Positions 28,920 through 37,072 of a stretch of DNA of 40,384 nt are shown piece by piece. Position numbers and translations under genes: made by a program. Numbering within the stretch: position 1 is the first letter of the stretch; each line of letters begins with the position of its first letter. The notes under the pieces were generated by a model. That model was given only the letters and a program-made list of their open reading frames with translations. It did no database searches and was not told the DNA's origin. The stretch spans positions 1 to 40,384 of the forward strand of contig JAFTIE010000206.1 of NCBI GenBank assembly GCA_017457065.1, given 5' to 3'. This stretch comes from Lentisphaeria bacterium. Lineage in GTDB: Bacteria; Verrucomicrobiota; Lentisphaeria; Victivallales; Victivallaceae.

Positions 28920-29600
28920 TTACTCCTTCTCATTGAGTTTGCAGATCTGGCAGCTGTGGCAATCCAATCCGGCAGGAGGAACATAGAGTTTGCCCGCCTT
29001 GATCGCTGCTCTGCGGGCAAAGTGATTTTTGGCGGCAAGGATCACGCCCAATATGACAAAGGCTCCGGGCGCCGCTGAAGCCAGCAGAAAATCAGTTGTC
29101 CAGCAGGTGATGATCTTGACTTCAAAAACCGACCCGGTACTGATGAATTCACGCAAAGCCCCCAGCATGGTCAGAGCCAGGGAAAACCCGAGTCCCATGC
29201 CGATACCATCAAAAACAGAACGCACAGGGTTGTTCTTTGAAGCAAAGGCTTCTGCTCTGCCCAGCACGATGCAGTTTACCACGATCAAAGGAATGAAGAT
29301 CCCCAATGCCGAATAAATGGCAGGAGGGGAGTATGCTTTCATCAGCATATCCACTGCGCTGACAAAGGTGGCAATGACCACGATATAGACCGGGATACGG
29401 ATCTTTTTTGGCACGATACCGGCAATACAGGATATGACCAGATTGCTGCCCGCCAGCACACAGGTGGTGGCAAGTCCCATGGCAAGACCGTTGGCGGCAG
29501 AGCTGGTGGTGGCGAGGGTGGGACATGTTCCCAAGAGCAGCACCAGCACCGGATTCTCTTTCCAGATGCCTTTAAGCATATCTTTGAAAGCTTTTTTCAC
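28920..29600 (-). CDS. rnfE: Rnf complex subunit E
   Basis: A 226-residue integral membrane subunit of the Rnf ferredoxin:NAD oxidoreductase, related to RnfA. Early ENPVLVLLLGTCPTLATT, the GIFIPLIVVNCIVLGRAEAFA segment and about six helices are typical. The tail is unusual: after the last helix it ends with CHSCQICKLNEKE, a CxxCxxC motif that could bind metal. The start is a GTG overlapping the rnfG stop by four bases, with GGGAG well placed. Confidence 0.93.
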   Translation of the reverse strand: MKKAFKDMLKGIWKENPVLVLLLGTCPTLATTSSAANGLAMGLATTCVLAGSNLVISCIAGIVPKKIRIPVYIVVIATFVSAVDMLMKAYSPPAIYSALGIFIPLIVVNCIVLGRAEAFASKNNPVRSVFDGIGMGLGFSLALTMLGALREFISTGSVFEVKIITCWTTDFLLASAAPGAFVILGVILAAKNHFARRAAIKAGKLYVPPAGLDCHSCQICKLNEKE

Positions 29601-30265
29601 TTTTTCTCTCCCTTCATAAAATCCTCCATGTGCAAACGGAGCGTTTTTCCAGCCTGTTCCACAGCGGCGGTCACTGCTCTTGATGTGATGGTGGCGCCGG
29701 TGACAAAGTCGAAACTGCCGCCGTCCCGTTTGACCTTCCAGCTTTCCTTTTCAGGAACCGTTTTTCCGTGGAACTGATCCAGAATGTGATTTGGAGGCAA
29801 TCCCACCGGACGGGGTTGAAAAAGATTGAATATGGTCTTGCGGAACTTGCGTTCACAGACATTGCTGCCCAATCCCGGAGTCTCCTGCTGGCGGGTAACA
29901 AGAACGGCAAGGATCTTGCCTGCGAGGTCAAATCCGGCAGTGATCTCAACGTCACCGGCATAACCGTCAGGGGAAACGCTCCTGACGGCAAAGGCTTTGA
30001 GGGCTCCTGCTTTGCGGACGGGCATGATGACCACTTTGAAGTTGCCCGGGGAAATGTACTCTTTTGCCTCACGGTCAGGGGCATTGTCAAAGAGTGGCAA
30101 GTTGAGCATTTTCAAAGATTTCTGCATGGTTTCACGCTGCATTTTTTCAATAGGGGCACGGGTCAGCATAAAGACCGGTGAAAGCACCAGTGCAGAGACC
30201 AGTGCCGTGATCCCCAGAAAAGCCCCCAGAACGGGCACACTTTCGTTTTCACGGAGTTTTGTCAT
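29597..30265 (-). CDS. rnfG: Rnf complex subunit G (covalent flavoprotein)
   Basis: A 222-residue subunit with one N-terminal membrane anchor (about 12-34) and an extracytoplasmic FMN-binding domain. TGATITS at 189-195 is the flavin attachment motif, with Thr192 the residue expected to carry FMN by phosphoester bond after ApbE action. GLGSNV near 131-136 is also conserved. It overlaps rnfD by four bases (ATGA). Length and motifs indicate a working protein. Confidence 0.94.
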   Translation of the reverse strand: MTKLRENESVPVLGAFLGITALVSALVLSPVFMLTRAPIEKMQRETMQKSLKMLNLPLFDNAPDREAKEYISPGNFKVVIMPVRKAGALKAFAVRSVSPDGYAGDVEITAGFDLAGKILAVLVTRQQETPGLGSNVCERKFRKTIFNLFQPRPVGLPPNHILDQFHGKTVPEKESWKVKRDGGSFDFVTGATITSRAVTAAVEQAGKTLRLHMEDFMKGEKK

Positions 30266-31407
30266 GATATCTGCTCCTTTTTGCGTTCTTTTTCACCGAA
30301 GGGGGCACGGGTGCAAAGCCGGTCGATAAGGGGAACAAGGGCGTTCATCAGCAATATGGCGAAACTGACTCCCTCAGGATAATTCCCCCAGATGCGGATC
30401 ACCACAGTAATGAGACCGCAACCCATGCCGAAAATCACACAGCCCCAGTTGGTCACAGGTGAAGTCACCATATCCTTCGCCATAAAAATAGCGCCAATCA
30501 GCAAGCCGCCCGTCAGCAAGTGAAAGAGCGCAGGGGGTGTCACTCCGGGAAAAAACCAGTGGATCACTCCCGCAAACAATGCGGCACTCCCGATAAAACA
30601 CAAGGGCACACGCCAGTTGATCAGTTTGAAACAGAGCAGTATGACAAGCCCCAGCAGCAGTGCCGGAGTGCAGGTTTCCCCGATACATCCGCTCCGGACA
30701 CCCCAGAAATATTTTTTCAACAGCTCAGGAGAGCTCACCTTATCAAAGTTATGACGCGCCGCAGCAATAAGATGACGGTCGTTTGGGGTATGAACGATCT
30801 TGCGGGTATCGGTCATAAGTCCCAGAGGGGTGGCACAAGTGATACCGTCCAGCTCACCGGCAGCGACTTTTTTCATCATTGCCGAACCGAAAAAGTACTC
30901 TGCCTGAGGATAATTTTTATCCATGCCTCTGGGAGGACTCCAAAGAGTCATGGCGGCGGGCAGAGCGATCAGGAGCCCCACACGGGCGACAACTGCCGGG
31001 TTGAAGGGATTGTGCCCCAAGCCTCCGAAGACCTGTTTTCCCAGCCAGATGGCAAGGAAAGCACCGATGACGGGCACATAAAAGGGAACCGCCGCCGGAA
31101 GATTCAAGGCGAGGATCATACCGGTAACCACGGCACTGAGATCTCCCAGCGCACTGCCGATCCTTTTCCCCGCCAGTCTGCACCACAGAGTTTCTGCCGC
31201 AACACAGGAAACGACGGTCACAAGGATCACCGCCAATGCCCGCAGACCGAAAAGCCATATCCCTGCGGCAGCTGCGGGAAGAAGAGCTGCGATGACCTTG
31301 AGCATGATCTTGCGGACGCTTTCTGAAGCGCTCACATGGGGGGAACTGCTCAGAACCAGTTTTTCCCCGGTGGGCAACTTGATATTTTCTGAAATGTTGT
31401 CACTCAT
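30262..31407 (-). CDS. rnfD: Rnf complex subunit D (membrane flavoprotein)
   Basis: A 381-residue membrane subunit with about eight to ten helices. Characteristic parts are SSSPHVSASESVRKIM at the start, KQVFGGLGHNPFNPAVVAR, and the DMVTSPVTNWG segment near residue 315, where a Thr in other RnfD/NqrB proteins carries FMN covalently. RnfD is thought to form much of the ion-conducting path with A and E. GGAG lies ten bases before the ATG, and the gene starts 14 bases after rnfC. Confidence 0.94.
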   Translation of the reverse strand: MSDNISENIKLPTGEKLVLSSSPHVSASESVRKIMLKVIAALLPAAAAGIWLFGLRALAVILVTVVSCVAAETLWCRLAGKRIGSALGDLSAVVTGMILALNLPAAVPFYVPVIGAFLAIWLGKQVFGGLGHNPFNPAVVARVGLLIALPAAMTLWSPPRGMDKNYPQAEYFFGSAMMKKVAAGELDGITCATPLGLMTDTRKIVHTPNDRHLIAAARHNFDKVSSPELLKKYFWGVRSGCIGETCTPALLLGLVILLCFKLINWRVPLCFIGSAALFAGVIHWFFPGVTPPALFHLLTGGLLIGAIFMAKDMVTSPVTNWGCVIFGMGCGLITVVIRIWGNYPEGVSFAILLMNALVPLIDRLCTRAPFGEKERKKEQIS

Positions 31408-31421
31408 GATCTGAAAGCTCC

Positions 31422-32738
31422 TTATTTCTTCTTGCGCAGTTCATTTTTAGCACGGCGGAACTGCTGGACCAGAGGACGCCGTGAAGGACACACATAAGCA
31501 CAGGCTCCGCACTCAAGGCAATCCATGACGTGTCCTTTTTGCGCCAGATCCAATCTGTTCCCCTCGATGGCTGCACAGAGCAGACAGGGAGTAAGTTTCA
31601 TGGGACAGACCTCTACACATCTGGCGCACCTGATACAGGGGGAAGAGGAAAAGTTCAAGGCGGTACGCCCGGGAAGCAGAAGTATGCCTGAGGTATTTTT
31701 GGCAACAGGCACATCAAAGGATCTCTGGGCAAAGCCCATCATGGGACCGCCGAGGATCAGTTTGCCGGGTTCTTCGGTGACACCTCCGGCAAGCTTGACA
31801 GCTTCAATAACGGGGGTTCCGATCCGGAGTTTGAAGTTGCCGGGATTTTTCACAGCTTCACCGCTGACGGTGACGACACGTTCAACAAGGGGGATCCCCA
31901 GAAGAACGCCGTCAGAGACAGCGGCGGCGGAACCGGCATTCTGGACCACACACCCGGCATCAAAGGGCAATCCCCCCGTGGGGACCCGTCTGCCGGTCAC
32001 GGCATAAATCAGCTGTTTTTCCGCTCCTTGCGGGTAGCGGACTTTCAAAACCTGTATCTGCACAGCAGTTCCAGCTGCGGCATTTCCCAAAGCGGCGATG
32101 GCATCGGGTTTATTTTCCTCAATACCGATGAAGATCCGGGAAACGTTAAGTATCTGCCCCATGATCAAAGCCCCGGTAACGACCTTTTGGGGGTATTCCG
32201 CCATAAGGCGGTGGTCTGCGGTCAGATAAGGTTCACATTCGGCGCCGTTGACGATCAAGGTATCGACCTTTTTATCAGGAGGAACTGAGAGCTTCACATG
32301 AGAAGGGAATGCCGCACCGCCCATACCGACGATGCCTGTATCTCTGATCCTGCCCAAAAGTTCCTGAGGCGTCTTGGAGTGCCACTCTTCCCAGGGGGCA
32401 AAGGGGGCTTCGCCGTGGTCGTACCCGTCGGCTTCGATCTCCACTGCCGTAACGGGAGTCCCCATGGGACCCGGCACTTCACGGATCTGCACCACAACAC
32501 CGCTGGTGGGGGCGTGAAGATGCGCAGAAACAAAACCGTCAGCTTCGGCAATAAGCTGATACTTTTTGATTTTATCCCCCTTGGCGACACAAAGGCGGGG
32601 CGGTTTCCCGGCATTTTCCATCAGGGGGACAAGGTATTTCTCAAGGAGCGGCGCTTCAATGATCCCGCAGGAATTTGTCAGGCTCTTGCCGTCATATTCG
32701 GGGTGCATCCCCCCGGAAAAACTTTTGACTTTGCTCAT
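31422..32738 (-). CDS. rnfC: Rnf complex subunit C (NADH-binding, 2x[4Fe-4S])
   Basis: A 438-residue peripheral subunit on the cytoplasmic side that exchanges electrons with NAD and binds FMN. GIVGMGGAAFPSHVKL and VNGAECEPYLTADHRL are the flavin/NADH region; two ferredoxin-type clusters follow near the end, CIRCARCVEVCP and CLECGACAYVCP. The N-terminal region includes the biotinyl-lipoyl-like barrel. ATG 32738 with AGAGGA upstream is preferred over the TTG at 32756. It overlaps the rnfB stop by four bases, so correct rnfC translation may depend on ribosomes completing rnfB. Confidence 0.95.
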   Translation of the reverse strand: MSKVKSFSGGMHPEYDGKSLTNSCGIIEAPLLEKYLVPLMENAGKPPRLCVAKGDKIKKYQLIAEADGFVSAHLHAPTSGVVVQIREVPGPMGTPVTAVEIEADGYDHGEAPFAPWEEWHSKTPQELLGRIRDTGIVGMGGAAFPSHVKLSVPPDKKVDTLIVNGAECEPYLTADHRLMAEYPQKVVTGALIMGQILNVSRIFIGIEENKPDAIAALGNAAAGTAVQIQVLKVRYPQGAEKQLIYAVTGRRVPTGGLPFDAGCVVQNAGSAAAVSDGVLLGIPLVERVVTVSGEAVKNPGNFKLRIGTPVIEAVKLAGGVTEEPGKLILGGPMMGFAQRSFDVPVAKNTSGILLLPGRTALNFSSSPCIRCARCVEVCPMKLTPCLLCAAIEGNRLDLAQKGHVMDCLECGACAYVCPSRRPLVQQFRRAKNELRKKK

Positions 32739-33166
32739 TTTTCCTCTTTCTTCCAATCGGGATCATTTTTTTCGATATAGTGGTGTTCCCGGGCAGACAG
32801 CAAAGCGCCTGTGGGACACTGGATCTTCTCAACACACTCCTCTCCGGGCAGAACTTCCGCCTCATAATTGACAGATGCCAAAGCGCCTGTAACGGTGAAC
32901 TGCTCACTTGAAAATTTGGCACATTTACGGCAGCCGATACATCCGACCTTGCACTGCTTGCGCTTTTCAGCGCCCATTTCAGGGGAATTGCAGTAAACAT
33001 GTACATCTGCTTCGGCAGGAACAAGGGCAATGATATGGCGGGGACAGACCGACACACACTTGCCGCAGCCCACGCAAAGCTCCCGGTGGACCAGTGCCAG
33101 ATTGTTGACGATCTCAATGGCTCCGAAGGGACAGACATTTGCACAGCTCCCCAGACCGAGGCAGCC
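32735..33166 (-). pseudogene. rnfB: rnfB 3' part, downstream of an in-frame stop
   Basis: This stretch continues RnfB in the same frame right after the TAA at 33167-33169: GCLGLGSCANVCP and LCVGCGKCVSVCP form the two ferredoxin-type clusters, then a Cys-rich KVGCIGCRKCAK segment and a tail ending at rnfC. All cluster cysteines are kept and the frame is clean, so decay is recent or the stop is bypassed. A GTG at 33073 has GGGAG six bases upstream and could restart translation, but would omit the first cluster. Confidence 0.85.
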
Positions 33167-33583
33167 TTAGCGGCACCCCTTGGGACCGCCCGCCACCATT
33201 GAAGCTGCGGCGCAATCGCTGACGCCGTTGTAGTTGAAACGGCTCACCGTCTGAAACATATCACCGCCGCAGCGGACAACAGCTCTCTTGCGGACTCCTC
33301 CATCAGGTGAGATCCCCAGAGCAAGAGCAATGGCGTTGATCTGCTCCTGACTTGAAACGGGGCAGCGGCAGGGGGGATTTTCGCCGGCGACCACAGATTT
33401 GGCAAAGTCGGCACAACCCGCCTTGCCGCATCCGCCGCAGTTGGCGCCGGGAAGAAGTTCCTGAACCAATTCCACCCGGGAGTCGGTATCGACCTTGAAA
33501 AAGCGGGCAAAAACACCAATGATCACACCGAGCAGGACTCCTGTGATCCCCATAAGCAAAAGTGCACCTGTGAGCATATCCAT
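33167..33583 (-). CDS. rnfB: rnfB 5' part, ending at an in-frame TAA
   Basis: RnfB is the ferredoxin-facing Fe-S subunit of Rnf. This part holds the N-terminal membrane anchor (about residues 3-23) and the Fe-S domain CGGCGKAGCADFAK with its later Cys, then stops with TAA just after GGPKGCR. In RnfB proteins this segment normally runs on as RYGC into the two ferredoxin clusters, and exactly that continuation follows the stop. As read it gives 138 residues, about half the normal length. The start may be ATG 33583, ATG 33577, or TTG 33589, which is best spaced from AAGGGG. Confidence 0.85.
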   Translation of the reverse strand: MDMLTGALLLMGITGVLLGVIIGVFARFFKVDTDSRVELVQELLPGANCGGCGKAGCADFAKSVVAGENPPCRCPVSSQEQINAIALALGISPDGGVRKRAVVRCGGDMFQTVSRFNYNGVSDCAAASMVAGGPKGCR

Positions 33584-33608: not shown

Positions 33609-34199
33609 TCAGCAGAGACCGGCAAAGCCGACAAACGCCATAGCGAGGATCCCGGCGGTCACAAGTCCGATGGGGATCCCTTCAAATGCCTTGGGGGGCG
33701 AAGCCAGTTCAAGCCGTTCCCTGAGGCTGGCAAAAAGCAGCAGGGCAATGGCAAAACCCACGCCTGAAAAGCAGCCGAATATGGTGGCGTCAAGAACGGA
33801 ACGCTGTGCATTGAAATTCAGTGCCGCAGACCCCAGCACAGCGCAGTTGGTGGTGATGAGAGGCAGATAGATCCCCAATGCCTGATAGAGGCCGGGAGCA
33901 AGTTTCTGCATAACGATCTCTATGACCTGAACCAGAGCGGCGATAACGAGGATGAAAATAAGCACCTGAAGAAAGCTCAGATCCACCACCTTCTCCCCCC
34001 AGGTGAATTTCAGGAGATGGTTGTAAATAAGCGCCGTGCAGAAAGAGGCCGCCGTCATGACAAATATGACAGCCCCCGACATCCCCATTGCCGTACTGAT
34101 CCTTTTGGAAACCCCCAGAAAGGGGCAGATGCCGAGAAAGCGGGTCAACACAAAGTTGTAGACCAGCGCCGCCCCCACAGTCAGTTCCAGATATTTCAT
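33609..34199 (-). CDS. rnfA: Rnf complex subunit A
   Basis: A 196-residue integral membrane protein with six predicted helices. VLTRFLGICPFLGVSKR near the N-terminus and YLPLITTNCAVLGSA carry the conserved half-membrane cysteines that, with those of RnfE, hold an Fe-S cluster inside the membrane. This is the first gene of the operon, in the order A-B-C-D-G-E. ATG 34199 has GGGAG eight bases upstream; an extension to 34223 would start inside the leader. Confidence 0.95.
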   Translation of the reverse strand: MKYLELTVGAALVYNFVLTRFLGICPFLGVSKRISTAMGMSGAVIFVMTAASFCTALIYNHLLKFTWGEKVVDLSFLQVLIFILVIAALVQVIEIVMQKLAPGLYQALGIYLPLITTNCAVLGSAALNFNAQRSVLDATIFGCFSGVGFAIALLLFASLRERLELASPPKAFEGIPIGLVTAGILAMAFVGFAGLC

Positions 34200-34228
34200 T
34201 GTTCTTTCTCCCGTTATGCACACTGTGT

Positions 34229-34552: not shown

Positions 34553-37072
34553 ATGTTGAATTTTTCAAAACTTCTTCTTATTTGTACTGCGATCGGTGCC
34601 GCAGGAGTTCTCCCGGCTCTGGAACTCAATAAAAATATGACGATGCCCATTGTCTATTTTGACAAAGACTCCAATCCGGGGACAGGAGCTTTTCTGAAAC
34701 TGACAGCTGAAAAACTTCAGAAGGCTTTTCAGGAAACTCTGGGGGCAAAAGTGGCGGTCATCCCTGCCTCAAAAGCACCTGCGGGTCTCAAAAGGGCTGT
34801 TTTTCTGGGAGACAATCCCCTGCTGCGGCAGCTGGGGAAGAAGCCTTCTTCCTTCAAAAACTTCGACTGCCTCATCGCTGAAGAAAAGGGTTCCATCCTT
34901 CTTGCCGGATTTGACGGACACCGCATCGGAAGCCCCAAAACAAGTAAAAGCCACAACGAATACATCCTCGGCTCCACCCGGGCGGCGGTGATTTTCATGG
35001 AAAAATTTCTGGGGACCCGTTTCCTCGCTCCCGGAGAAACCGGAACCGACTACATGCGCAAACGCAAAGTGGTGATCCCCGACAAATTCCGCATGGAGCA
35101 CAGCCACAATCTCAACTATGCTCTGGGGAGAGCGCCTGACTTCTTTTACGACTACTCCAGTTCTCTTTTCGGACAGGGCAGATACCACACCCACGGCGGA
35201 CACTCCTATTATCAGGCTGTGCCCAAAGCTGTTTACGGCAAATCCCATCCCCAATATTTCGCCCAGACCGGCAGTGATCCCAATGTCCGTGACAGCAGCA
35301 ACAACCACCTCTGCCTCGGCAACAAAGAAGTCGAGGAGCTGATCTTCAAGCAGATGCTCAAAGATCTGGATGCAGGCAACGAAATCACTCAGTTGGCTCA
35401 GACCGATGCCATGGTCCAATGCCTCTGCAAGCTCTGCCGTGCCATGCCCTACTGGAGCGATCCCGGGGAATGGATCTGGAACTTCCACAAAAAGCTTGCC
35501 GAAAGAGTTCTTAAAGAGCGTCCCGGGAAAAAAGTACTCATCATCTGCTACGCCCCCAACTGGGATCCCCCGAAAACCTTCAAAAAATTCCCTGCCAACA
35601 CAGCTGTTGAACTGTGTAAATACGACAGTAAAGTCCTGGAAAAGTGGAAAAATTACACTGTCCCCCAGGGATTTCAGGTCTATCTTTACAACTGGGGGAG
35701 CTACGTCCGCAGTGGTCTCACCCCCAAAAGGACGCCTCAATTCTGCGCCGATCAGGCACGGGAGTTCATTAAATTCGGCGTCAAAGGTCTTTACCGCTGC
35801 GGCTTCGGAGAAGGCTTCGGACTTGAGGGACCTTCGTACTACGTTTACGGCAAGATACTTGAAGATCCCTCGCGCAACGAAAAGAAGCTGACGGAAGAGT
35901 TTATTGAACGCGCCTACCACGAAAGCGCCGCTCCCATGAAGCGCTTTTTTGAAACATTGTACAGCAAACTGCAAATATTCTCTGTGGTGGAGCGCTCCGT
36001 TGATGCAAGGGAGATCCTCAACATGATCTACCCCCCGGAAACCCTTGCTCTGCTGGAACGGCATTTGAAGCGTGCCGAAAGCACTGCCACACGGGGCAAA
36101 GTCAAACGCCGTCTGGCATTGGTCCGGACCGAATTTGACTACCTGAAAAAGACAGTCCGTGCCCTGACACTTTTTGTTGCCTACCGGACCGCTCCAACCA
36201 AACACTCTCTTGAAGAGCTGCTTAAAGCCATTGATGAAAGAAATGCTTATATCCGCTCTGTCGCACCAAAGGGGACCGTTAAAAAAATCCCCGGCTGGCG
36301 TGAGGTGCGCGTATTTGGCAACAGGGGGAAACAGCTTCTGAACAACGGACGTCTTTCAGCCTATATCGGAGCTCCCTTTGAATGGGACACCGCCCATATC
36401 CGCAAACTGGGCGTTCTTCCCGGCACCCGGACCAAAAAACTTGAGATCCTTCCGGCAAATGGCAAGGTGACTTTTGACGACTTTGAAAAGGGAGTCTGGA
36501 AAAAGGCTCAGTGGCACAAACTGGGAGGGATCCAGCTTGAGCCCCTCAGCGAGCAGACCTGGTTCAAGATGCTCTACGACAAAGAAAACCTTTACGTTGC
36601 CGTCAAAGCCGAACTCAAAGGCAACCGCAAAACAACTGCCGTCGGCAGGGACGGTGTTTTCTGGCGCCAGAACGCCATTGAACTTTTCCTCGACCCCAAG
36701 GGCGAAAGGGAGATCTGCTATCATCTGGCATGGAACCCTGTAGCTGACTCTTACTGGGATGCGGCAAAGGGGCTCATTACCGACCCGCTCCACCCTGATT
36801 ACGGTAAAAACCTCAAATCCTGGAACGGCGATTGGCGTTACATGAACCGGCATGAAAAAGATATGTGGTACTCTATGGCGGTGATCCCCTTCAAGAACTT
36901 CGGCGTGAAGGTCGTTCCCGGTGTTGTCTGGACCTTGAATGTAGGCAGAGAGATCCGTTATCCCGCCGAGCACACAGCCACCGACATGGACCAGCTGGGT
37001 TTGTGGGCGCCCAATCTTTCCTCCAGAATTTTTGCGGACATCAACGCCTTTGGAGAAGCTGTATTCAAATAA
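34553..37072 (+). CDS. Secreted DUF4838 glycan-active protein with C-terminal CBM9-like domain
   Basis: An 839-residue exported protein: signal peptide at about 1-22 (LLLICTAIGAAGVLPALE), an alpha-glucuronidase-like N-terminal domain at about 30-160 (including GSTRAAVIFMEKFLGTRFLAPGE), then the DUF4838 region at about 180-480 with WIWNFHKKLAERVL and VYLYNWGSYVRSG. A helical segment follows, and a CBM9/DOMON-like beta domain fills about 640-835 (LYVAVKAEL, AIELFLDP, WTLNVGREIR). Such proteins are common in Lentisphaerae and Bacteroidetes glycan degraders; the substrate is unknown. GAGGAA lies seven bases before the ATG. The gene stands alone under its own promoter. Confidence 0.87.
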   Translation: MLNFSKLLLICTAIGAAGVLPALELNKNMTMPIVYFDKDSNPGTGAFLKLTAEKLQKAFQETLGAKVAVIPASKAPAGLKRAVFLGDNPLLRQLGKKPSSFKNFDCLIAEEKGSILLAGFDGHRIGSPKTSKSHNEYILGSTRAAVIFMEKFLGTRFLAPGETGTDYMRKRKVVIPDKFRMEHSHNLNYALGRAPDFFYDYSSSLFGQGRYHTHGGHSYYQAVPKAVYGKSHPQYFAQTGSDPNVRDSSNNHLCLGNKEVEELIFKQMLKDLDAGNEITQLAQTDAMVQCLCKLCRAMPYWSDPGEWIWNFHKKLAERVLKERPGKKVLIICYAPNWDPPKTFKKFPANTAVELCKYDSKVLEKWKNYTVPQGFQVYLYNWGSYVRSGLTPKRTPQFCADQAREFIKFGVKGLYRCGFGEGFGLEGPSYYVYGKILEDPSRNEKKLTEEFIERAYHESAAPMKRFFETLYSKLQIFSVVERSVDAREILNMIYPPETLALLERHLKRAESTATRGKVKRRLALVRTEFDYLKKTVRALTLFVAYRTAPTKHSLEELLKAIDERNAYIRSVAPKGTVKKIPGWREVRVFGNRGKQLLNNGRLSAYIGAPFEWDTAHIRKLGVLPGTRTKKLEILPANGKVTFDDFEKGVWKKAQWHKLGGIQLEPLSEQTWFKMLYDKENLYVAVKAELKGNRKTTAVGRDGVFWRQNAIELFLDPKGEREICYHLAWNPVADSYWDAAKGLITDPLHPDYGKNLKSWNGDWRYMNRHEKDMWYSMAVIPFKNFGVKVVPGVVWTLNVGREIRYPAEHTATDMDQLGLWAPNLSSRIFADINAFGEAVFK

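What the first reader, a model, noticed from the sequence alone, without database searches (positions are those of the whole stretch)
32735..33583. rnfB interrupted by one in-frame TAA between its Fe-S domains
The frame runs GGPKGCR, TAA, GCLGLGSC without any shift. RnfB proteins usually have Tyr at this point (CRYGC), and TAA is one base from either Tyr codon. All cluster cysteines downstream are intact, and rnfA, C, D, G and E look functional behind a near-consensus promoter. So it is either a very recent nonsense mutation, stop-codon read-through, or restart at GTG 33073 (GGGAG six bases upstream), which would split RnfB into two polypeptides and drop one ferredoxin cluster. TAA ends other genes here, so the code is standard.
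Basis: partly seen in the sequence, partly recalled or inferred. Interest (0 to 1): 0.72.

Follow-up and report, generated by a model that had tools for sequence, protein, structure and literature searches.

The report
Nonsense codon in one rnfB copy
One metagenome-assembled gut bacterium carries a single stop codon in the middle of an otherwise normal energy-metabolism gene (rnfB), which is best read as a very recent mutation or an assembly error and not as a new way of making the protein.

Summary
An in-frame TAA lies at 33169-33167 (minus strand), codon 139 of rnfB, in a complete rnfABCDGE operon of a Lentisphaeria (Victivallaceae-type) metagenome-assembled genome (MAG). No relative shares it: all 29 aligned relatives have a sense codon there (27 Tyr, 1 Phe, 1 His).

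dN/dS is equally low on both sides of the stop, so it is very young or not real. Nothing supports decoding of TAA: no suppressor tRNA was recognised, release factor RF1 is present, TAA ends 105 of 271 long ORFs, and 31 ABC domains hold no internal stop. The proposed GTG restart would remove all of ferredoxin motif I and the first Cys of motif II, and its start codon and Shine-Dalgarno-like bases are ordinary coding sequence.

Similar lesions occur at a low background rate: a TGA in another gene of this genome, a TAG in rnfA of G027, and frameshifts in rnfB of G022 and probably rnfC of G030. Each is private to one MAG.

Best explanation: an isolated, very recent nonsense mutation, or a consensus error. 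Either would give a 138-residue product without the FdII/FdIII ferredoxin domains. Mutation and error cannot be separated without reads. Ordinary; low interest.

The parts
32735..33583 (-). rnfB, 282 codons plus terminal TAA, interrupted once in frame; single copy in this genome
   Evidence: 85-86% identical, uninterrupted orthologues in G027 and G013
33167..33169 (-). in-frame TAA at codon 139; sense codon (Tyr/Phe/His) in all 29 relatives aligned
33170..33583 (-). N-terminal 138 residues: membrane anchor, FdI (PF04060 Fe-S domain) and the linker that meets RnfC; the predicted product if translation stops
   Evidence: domain limits by alignment to C. tetanomorphum and A. woodii RnfB (PMC9588780)
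32738..33166 (-). C-terminal 143 codons downstream of the stop: 2[4Fe-4S] ferredoxin domain (FdII) and further cysteines, all intact; dN/dS as low as upstream
33071..33073 (-). GTG proposed as restart: codon 171, the Val of CVGC; a start here excludes Cys141, 147, 151 and 170
33609..34223 (-). rnfA, intact (start probably at 34199)
31422..32756 (-). rnfC, intact
30262..31407 (-). rnfD, intact
29597..30265 (-). rnfG, intact
28920..29600 (-). rnfE, intact

Best explanation
An isolated nonsense codon in one assembled copy of an ordinary rnfB. It is either a very recent loss-of-function mutation in the sampled strain (about 50%) or a single-base consensus error or minor-strain base in the metagenome assembly (about 43%). 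If real, translation ends after residue 138. That leaves the membrane anchor and FdI, removes the FdII/FdIII ferredoxin domains that take electrons from ferredoxin, and should inactivate the Rnf pump. Shown: the stop, its absence in relatives, unrelaxed selection downstream, standard termination. Inferred: which of the two origins applies, and the loss of function.
For: Single in-frame TAA with an otherwise intact frame. 29 of 29 aligned relatives have a sense codon there: 27 Tyr, 1 Phe, 1 His. dN/dS is about 0.1 on both sides against G027 and G013; a rough calculation rejects neutral drift downstream for more than about 10-30% of this lineage's branch. rnfB has no substitution at columns invariant in the other genomes. 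The other rnf genes are intact. TAA is a working stop (105 of 271 long ORFs), RF1 is present, and no suppressor anticodon occurs among the 40 tRNA hits read. Comparable private lesions exist in this MAG and its kin: a TGA in a DUF4838-type gene, a TAG in G027 rnfA, a frameshift in G022 rnfB and an apparent one in G030 rnfC.
Against: rnfB is single copy here, and every same-genus genome searched has an rnfB match, so a fixed real nonsense mutation would be costly; that favours the error or minor-variant half. Interruptions of this type are rare in the genome (2 in 420 kb), so the site is not trivially explained by a very error-rich assembly.
Confidence: 0.93

Rival explanations
1. The TAA is read through (suppression or recoding), giving full-length RnfB.
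For: The downstream frame is intact and under purifying selection. One of the two class-I release factors was not found in the 90%-complete assembly.
Against: No relative has a stop here. No tRNA with an anticodon for TAA among 40 hits. TAA ends 39% of long ORFs. The release factor found is RF1 (PxT motif), which recognises UAA (specificity from general knowledge); RF2 is present in G013 and G027, and the other four relatives checked also have two full-length class-I factors. No internal stops in 31 ABC domains. The intact downstream frame is equally expected of a young lesion.
Confidence: 0.03
2. Two-polypeptide RnfB: translation restarts at GTG 33073 and the halves assemble.
For: GGGAG lies six bases before an in-frame GTG.
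Against: The GTG is the Val codon of the CVGC motif and GGGAG is Arg-Glu coding; several uninterrupted relatives have the same or similar bases (L003, L005, L006, L021), so they are not restart adaptations. A product starting there lacks motif I (C141, C147, C151) and C170 of motif II, so neither cluster of that ferredoxin fold has its full ligand set. No relative has rnfB split at this place.
Confidence: 0.02
3. The 138-residue N-terminal product (anchor plus FdI) works as a shortened RnfB, as in T. maritima, whose RnfB is reported to consist only of the FdI domain (PMC9588780).
For: The stop lies at the FdI/FdII boundary by alignment with C. tetanomorphum RnfB (FdII 141-189). The PF04060 domain is complete.
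Against: The downstream half is under the same constraint as the upstream half, so full-length RnfB was used until very recently. No congener is shortened at this point. The boundary position has a simple explanation: the Tyr codon there is one base from a stop.
Confidence: 0.02

Closest known systems
RnfB of the Na+/H+-translocating ferredoxin:NAD+ oxidoreductase (Rnf), e.g. C. tetanomorphum 7zc6_B and A. woodii 9eri_B
   Same: Same domain order and cysteine motifs, same CRYGCLG segment in the relatives; rnfABCDGE subunits all adjacent
   Different: This copy has TAA instead of the Tyr codon of CRYGC; shorter C-terminus than the 333-aa chain 9eri_B
Recent nonsense pseudogenes, and single-base consensus errors in MAGs
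   Same: Private to one genome, one base from a sense codon, no decay or relaxed selection downstream, other such lesions at low frequency in the same and related MAGs
   Different: No difference found
Shortened RnfB (T. maritima, FdI domain only, per PMC9588780)
   Same: The truncated product would have an anchor and FdI only
   Different: Here the FdII/FdIII coding sequence is still present and constrained

Membership tests
RnfB | N-terminal PF04060 Fe-S domain (FdI) | tested here: met
   PF04060 40.9 bits over the 23-bit cut-off
RnfB | 2[4Fe-4S] ferredoxin domain in the same open frame | tested here: not met
   Cysteines encoded but separated from the N-terminus by TAA; intact in G027, G013 and others
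RnfB | Encoded in an rnfABCDGE operon | tested here: met
Recent nonsense lesion or assembly error | Stop absent from all relatives | tested here: met
   29 relatives; full-length same-genus matches without internal stops
Recent nonsense lesion or assembly error | No relaxation of selection downstream | tested here: met
Assembly error specifically | Raw reads show a sense codon at 33167-33169 | not testable with these tools
Stop-codon recoding or read-through | Suppressor tRNA, missing UAA-reading release factor, or stop conserved in relatives | tested here: not met
   about 10% of the genome is unassembled
Split (two-polypeptide) RnfB | Second polypeptide carries complete cluster ligands and an adapted start site | tested here: not met
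   Start at codon 171 omits C141, C147, C151 and C170; start-region bases shared with uninterrupted relatives

The most novel reading that the evidence does not exclude
The 138-residue anchor-plus-FdI product still serves Rnf as a T. maritima-like short RnfB, i.e. a lineage caught just after RnfB shortening at a domain boundary.
Probability: 0.02. Interest if true: 0.5.

Novelty: already known. Interest (0 to 1): 0.1.

Why it matters
It matters mainly as a caution: single-base stops in otherwise healthy genes of metagenome-assembled genomes occur at a low background rate and should not be read as recoding or split proteins without reads or conservation. If the mutation is real in the population, it would be a naturally occurring Rnf-negative strain of an uncultured gut Lentisphaeria.

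Tried and rejected
Suppressor tRNA search: none among 40 hits. Check for a second rnfB: none. Alternative code: RF1 present, TAA common as terminator. Recurrent loss of Rnf in the genus was considered because G027 rnfA, G022 rnfB and G030 rnfC also look interrupted. Rejected as a special pattern: about 4 lesions in 37 operons, two of them frameshifts, each private, and a DUF4838-type gene of G000 has the same kind of stop. A frameshift detector missed its own two positive controls, so its output is not used. An independent assembly of the same species was sought in genome contigs; only other species were returned (the tool may leave out the window's own genome). G053's listed TAA lies at the gene's end and is normal. 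Two four-term paper searches found nothing.

Full report
What is there. The window is a whole contig (C175, 40384 bp) of a 3.52-Mb, 272-contig MAG that is 90% complete. Its closest named relatives are Lentisphaeria / Victivallaceae MAGs from ruminant and horse gut. On the minus strand lies rnfA-B-C-D-G-E, followed by an AMMECR1-domain gene. rnfB (33583-32735) reads as one frame of 282 codons with a single TAA at codon 139, window 33169-33167.

Relatives. 60 related genomes were searched. The two nearest orthologues, 86% (G027) and 85% (G013) identical, are uninterrupted. Of 29 relatives aligned, 27 have Tyr, one Phe and one His at this codon; none has a stop. The same segment CRYGCLG occurs in chain 9eri_B, the RnfB of a solved Rnf complex.

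Age of the stop. Pairwise dN/dS (Nei-Gojobori) against G027 and G013 is 0.11-0.12 upstream and 0.07-0.09 downstream. A rough Poisson bound from branch arithmetic rejects neutral evolution of the downstream half for more than about 10-30% of this lineage's branch, depending on assumptions. rnfB of this genome has no substitution at any column otherwise invariant in the set. So the stop is very young or is not in the organism.

Decoding. Forty tRNA hits were read with ARAGORN: ordinary anticodons, Tyr GTA, no suppressor. TAA ends 105 of 271 long ORFs in 420 kb (TGA 163, TAG 3). The class-I release factor found has the PxT motif of RF1, which terminates at UAA and UAG (general knowledge). RF2 was not found here but is present in G013 and G027, and the other four relatives checked also have two full-length class-I factors, so RF2 is probably in the unassembled tenth. 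Thirty-one ABC domains in this genome contain no internal stop.

Restart. GTG 33073 is codon 171, the Val of the CVGC motif. A product starting there lacks Cys141, 147 and 151 (motif I) and Cys170 (first Cys of motif II). The bases before it are CGGGA(A/G), coding for Arg-Glu, shared with uninterrupted relatives such as L003, L005 and L021; L006 has CAGGAG.

Background. In 420 kb of this genome, a scan for stops flanked by same-frame coding sequence without a nearby start gave two credible cases: this rnfB and a TGA in a DUF4838-type gene (G000:C133, L172:12629), whose 70%-identical G013 homologue has a Gly codon there. In about 37 rnf operons inspected there were a TAG in rnfA of G027 (L142:13801), a frameshift in rnfB of G022 and an apparent frameshift in rnfC of G030, each private. 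Lesions of this sort are therefore uncommon but ordinary in these MAGs. One search tried to count frameshifts but missed its controls and is not used.

Consequence if real. By alignment to C. tetanomorphum RnfB (PMC9588780: anchor 1-29, FdI 40-90, FdII 141-189, FdIII 215-268), the product would keep the anchor and FdI and lose FdII and FdIII, the entry point for electrons from ferredoxin. In Bacteroides, substitutions of the cluster-binding cysteines of RnfB abolish Rnf function, and Rnf is dispensable in vitro but needed in the gut (PMC12718326). rnfB is single copy here and the genome encodes one [FeFe]-hydrogenase catalytic domain, so a true mutant would probably have a redox-balancing defect (inference).

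Verdict. It is a private, very young nonsense codon or a consensus error, with no evidence for read-through or a split protein. Without reads the two ordinary origins cannot be separated: about 50% real recent mutation, about 43% assembly error or minor strain base, the rest spread over the rivals.

Noticed in passing
L142:13801 (G027:C83): rnfA of the nearest relative G027 is interrupted by an in-frame TAG where the window's own rnfA has Gln; a private lesion in a different subunit of the same operon.
   Followed up: partly
G022:C125 about 9620 (L204) and G030:C41 (L205): rnfB of G022 is split by a frameshift within the FdI-coding part; rnfC of G030 appears frameshifted on a 3.6-kb contig.
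   Followed up: partly
L172:12629 (G000:C133): In-frame TGA near the C-terminus of a roughly 1000-residue DUF4838-type, CBM-like protein; a second nonsense lesion in the same MAG, with a Gly codon in the G013 homologue.
   Followed up: yes
G000 (32 matches), G013 (37), G022 (18); window ORF 34553-37072 also has a DUF4838 domain: A strongly expanded family of roughly 1000-residue proteins sharing this C-terminal domain in G000, G013 and G022, but sparse or absent in most other genus members searched.
   Followed up: no
G000 genome: TAG is very rare as a terminator (3 of 271 long ORFs) although RF1 is present; RF2 was not found in this 90%-complete assembly.
   Followed up: partly
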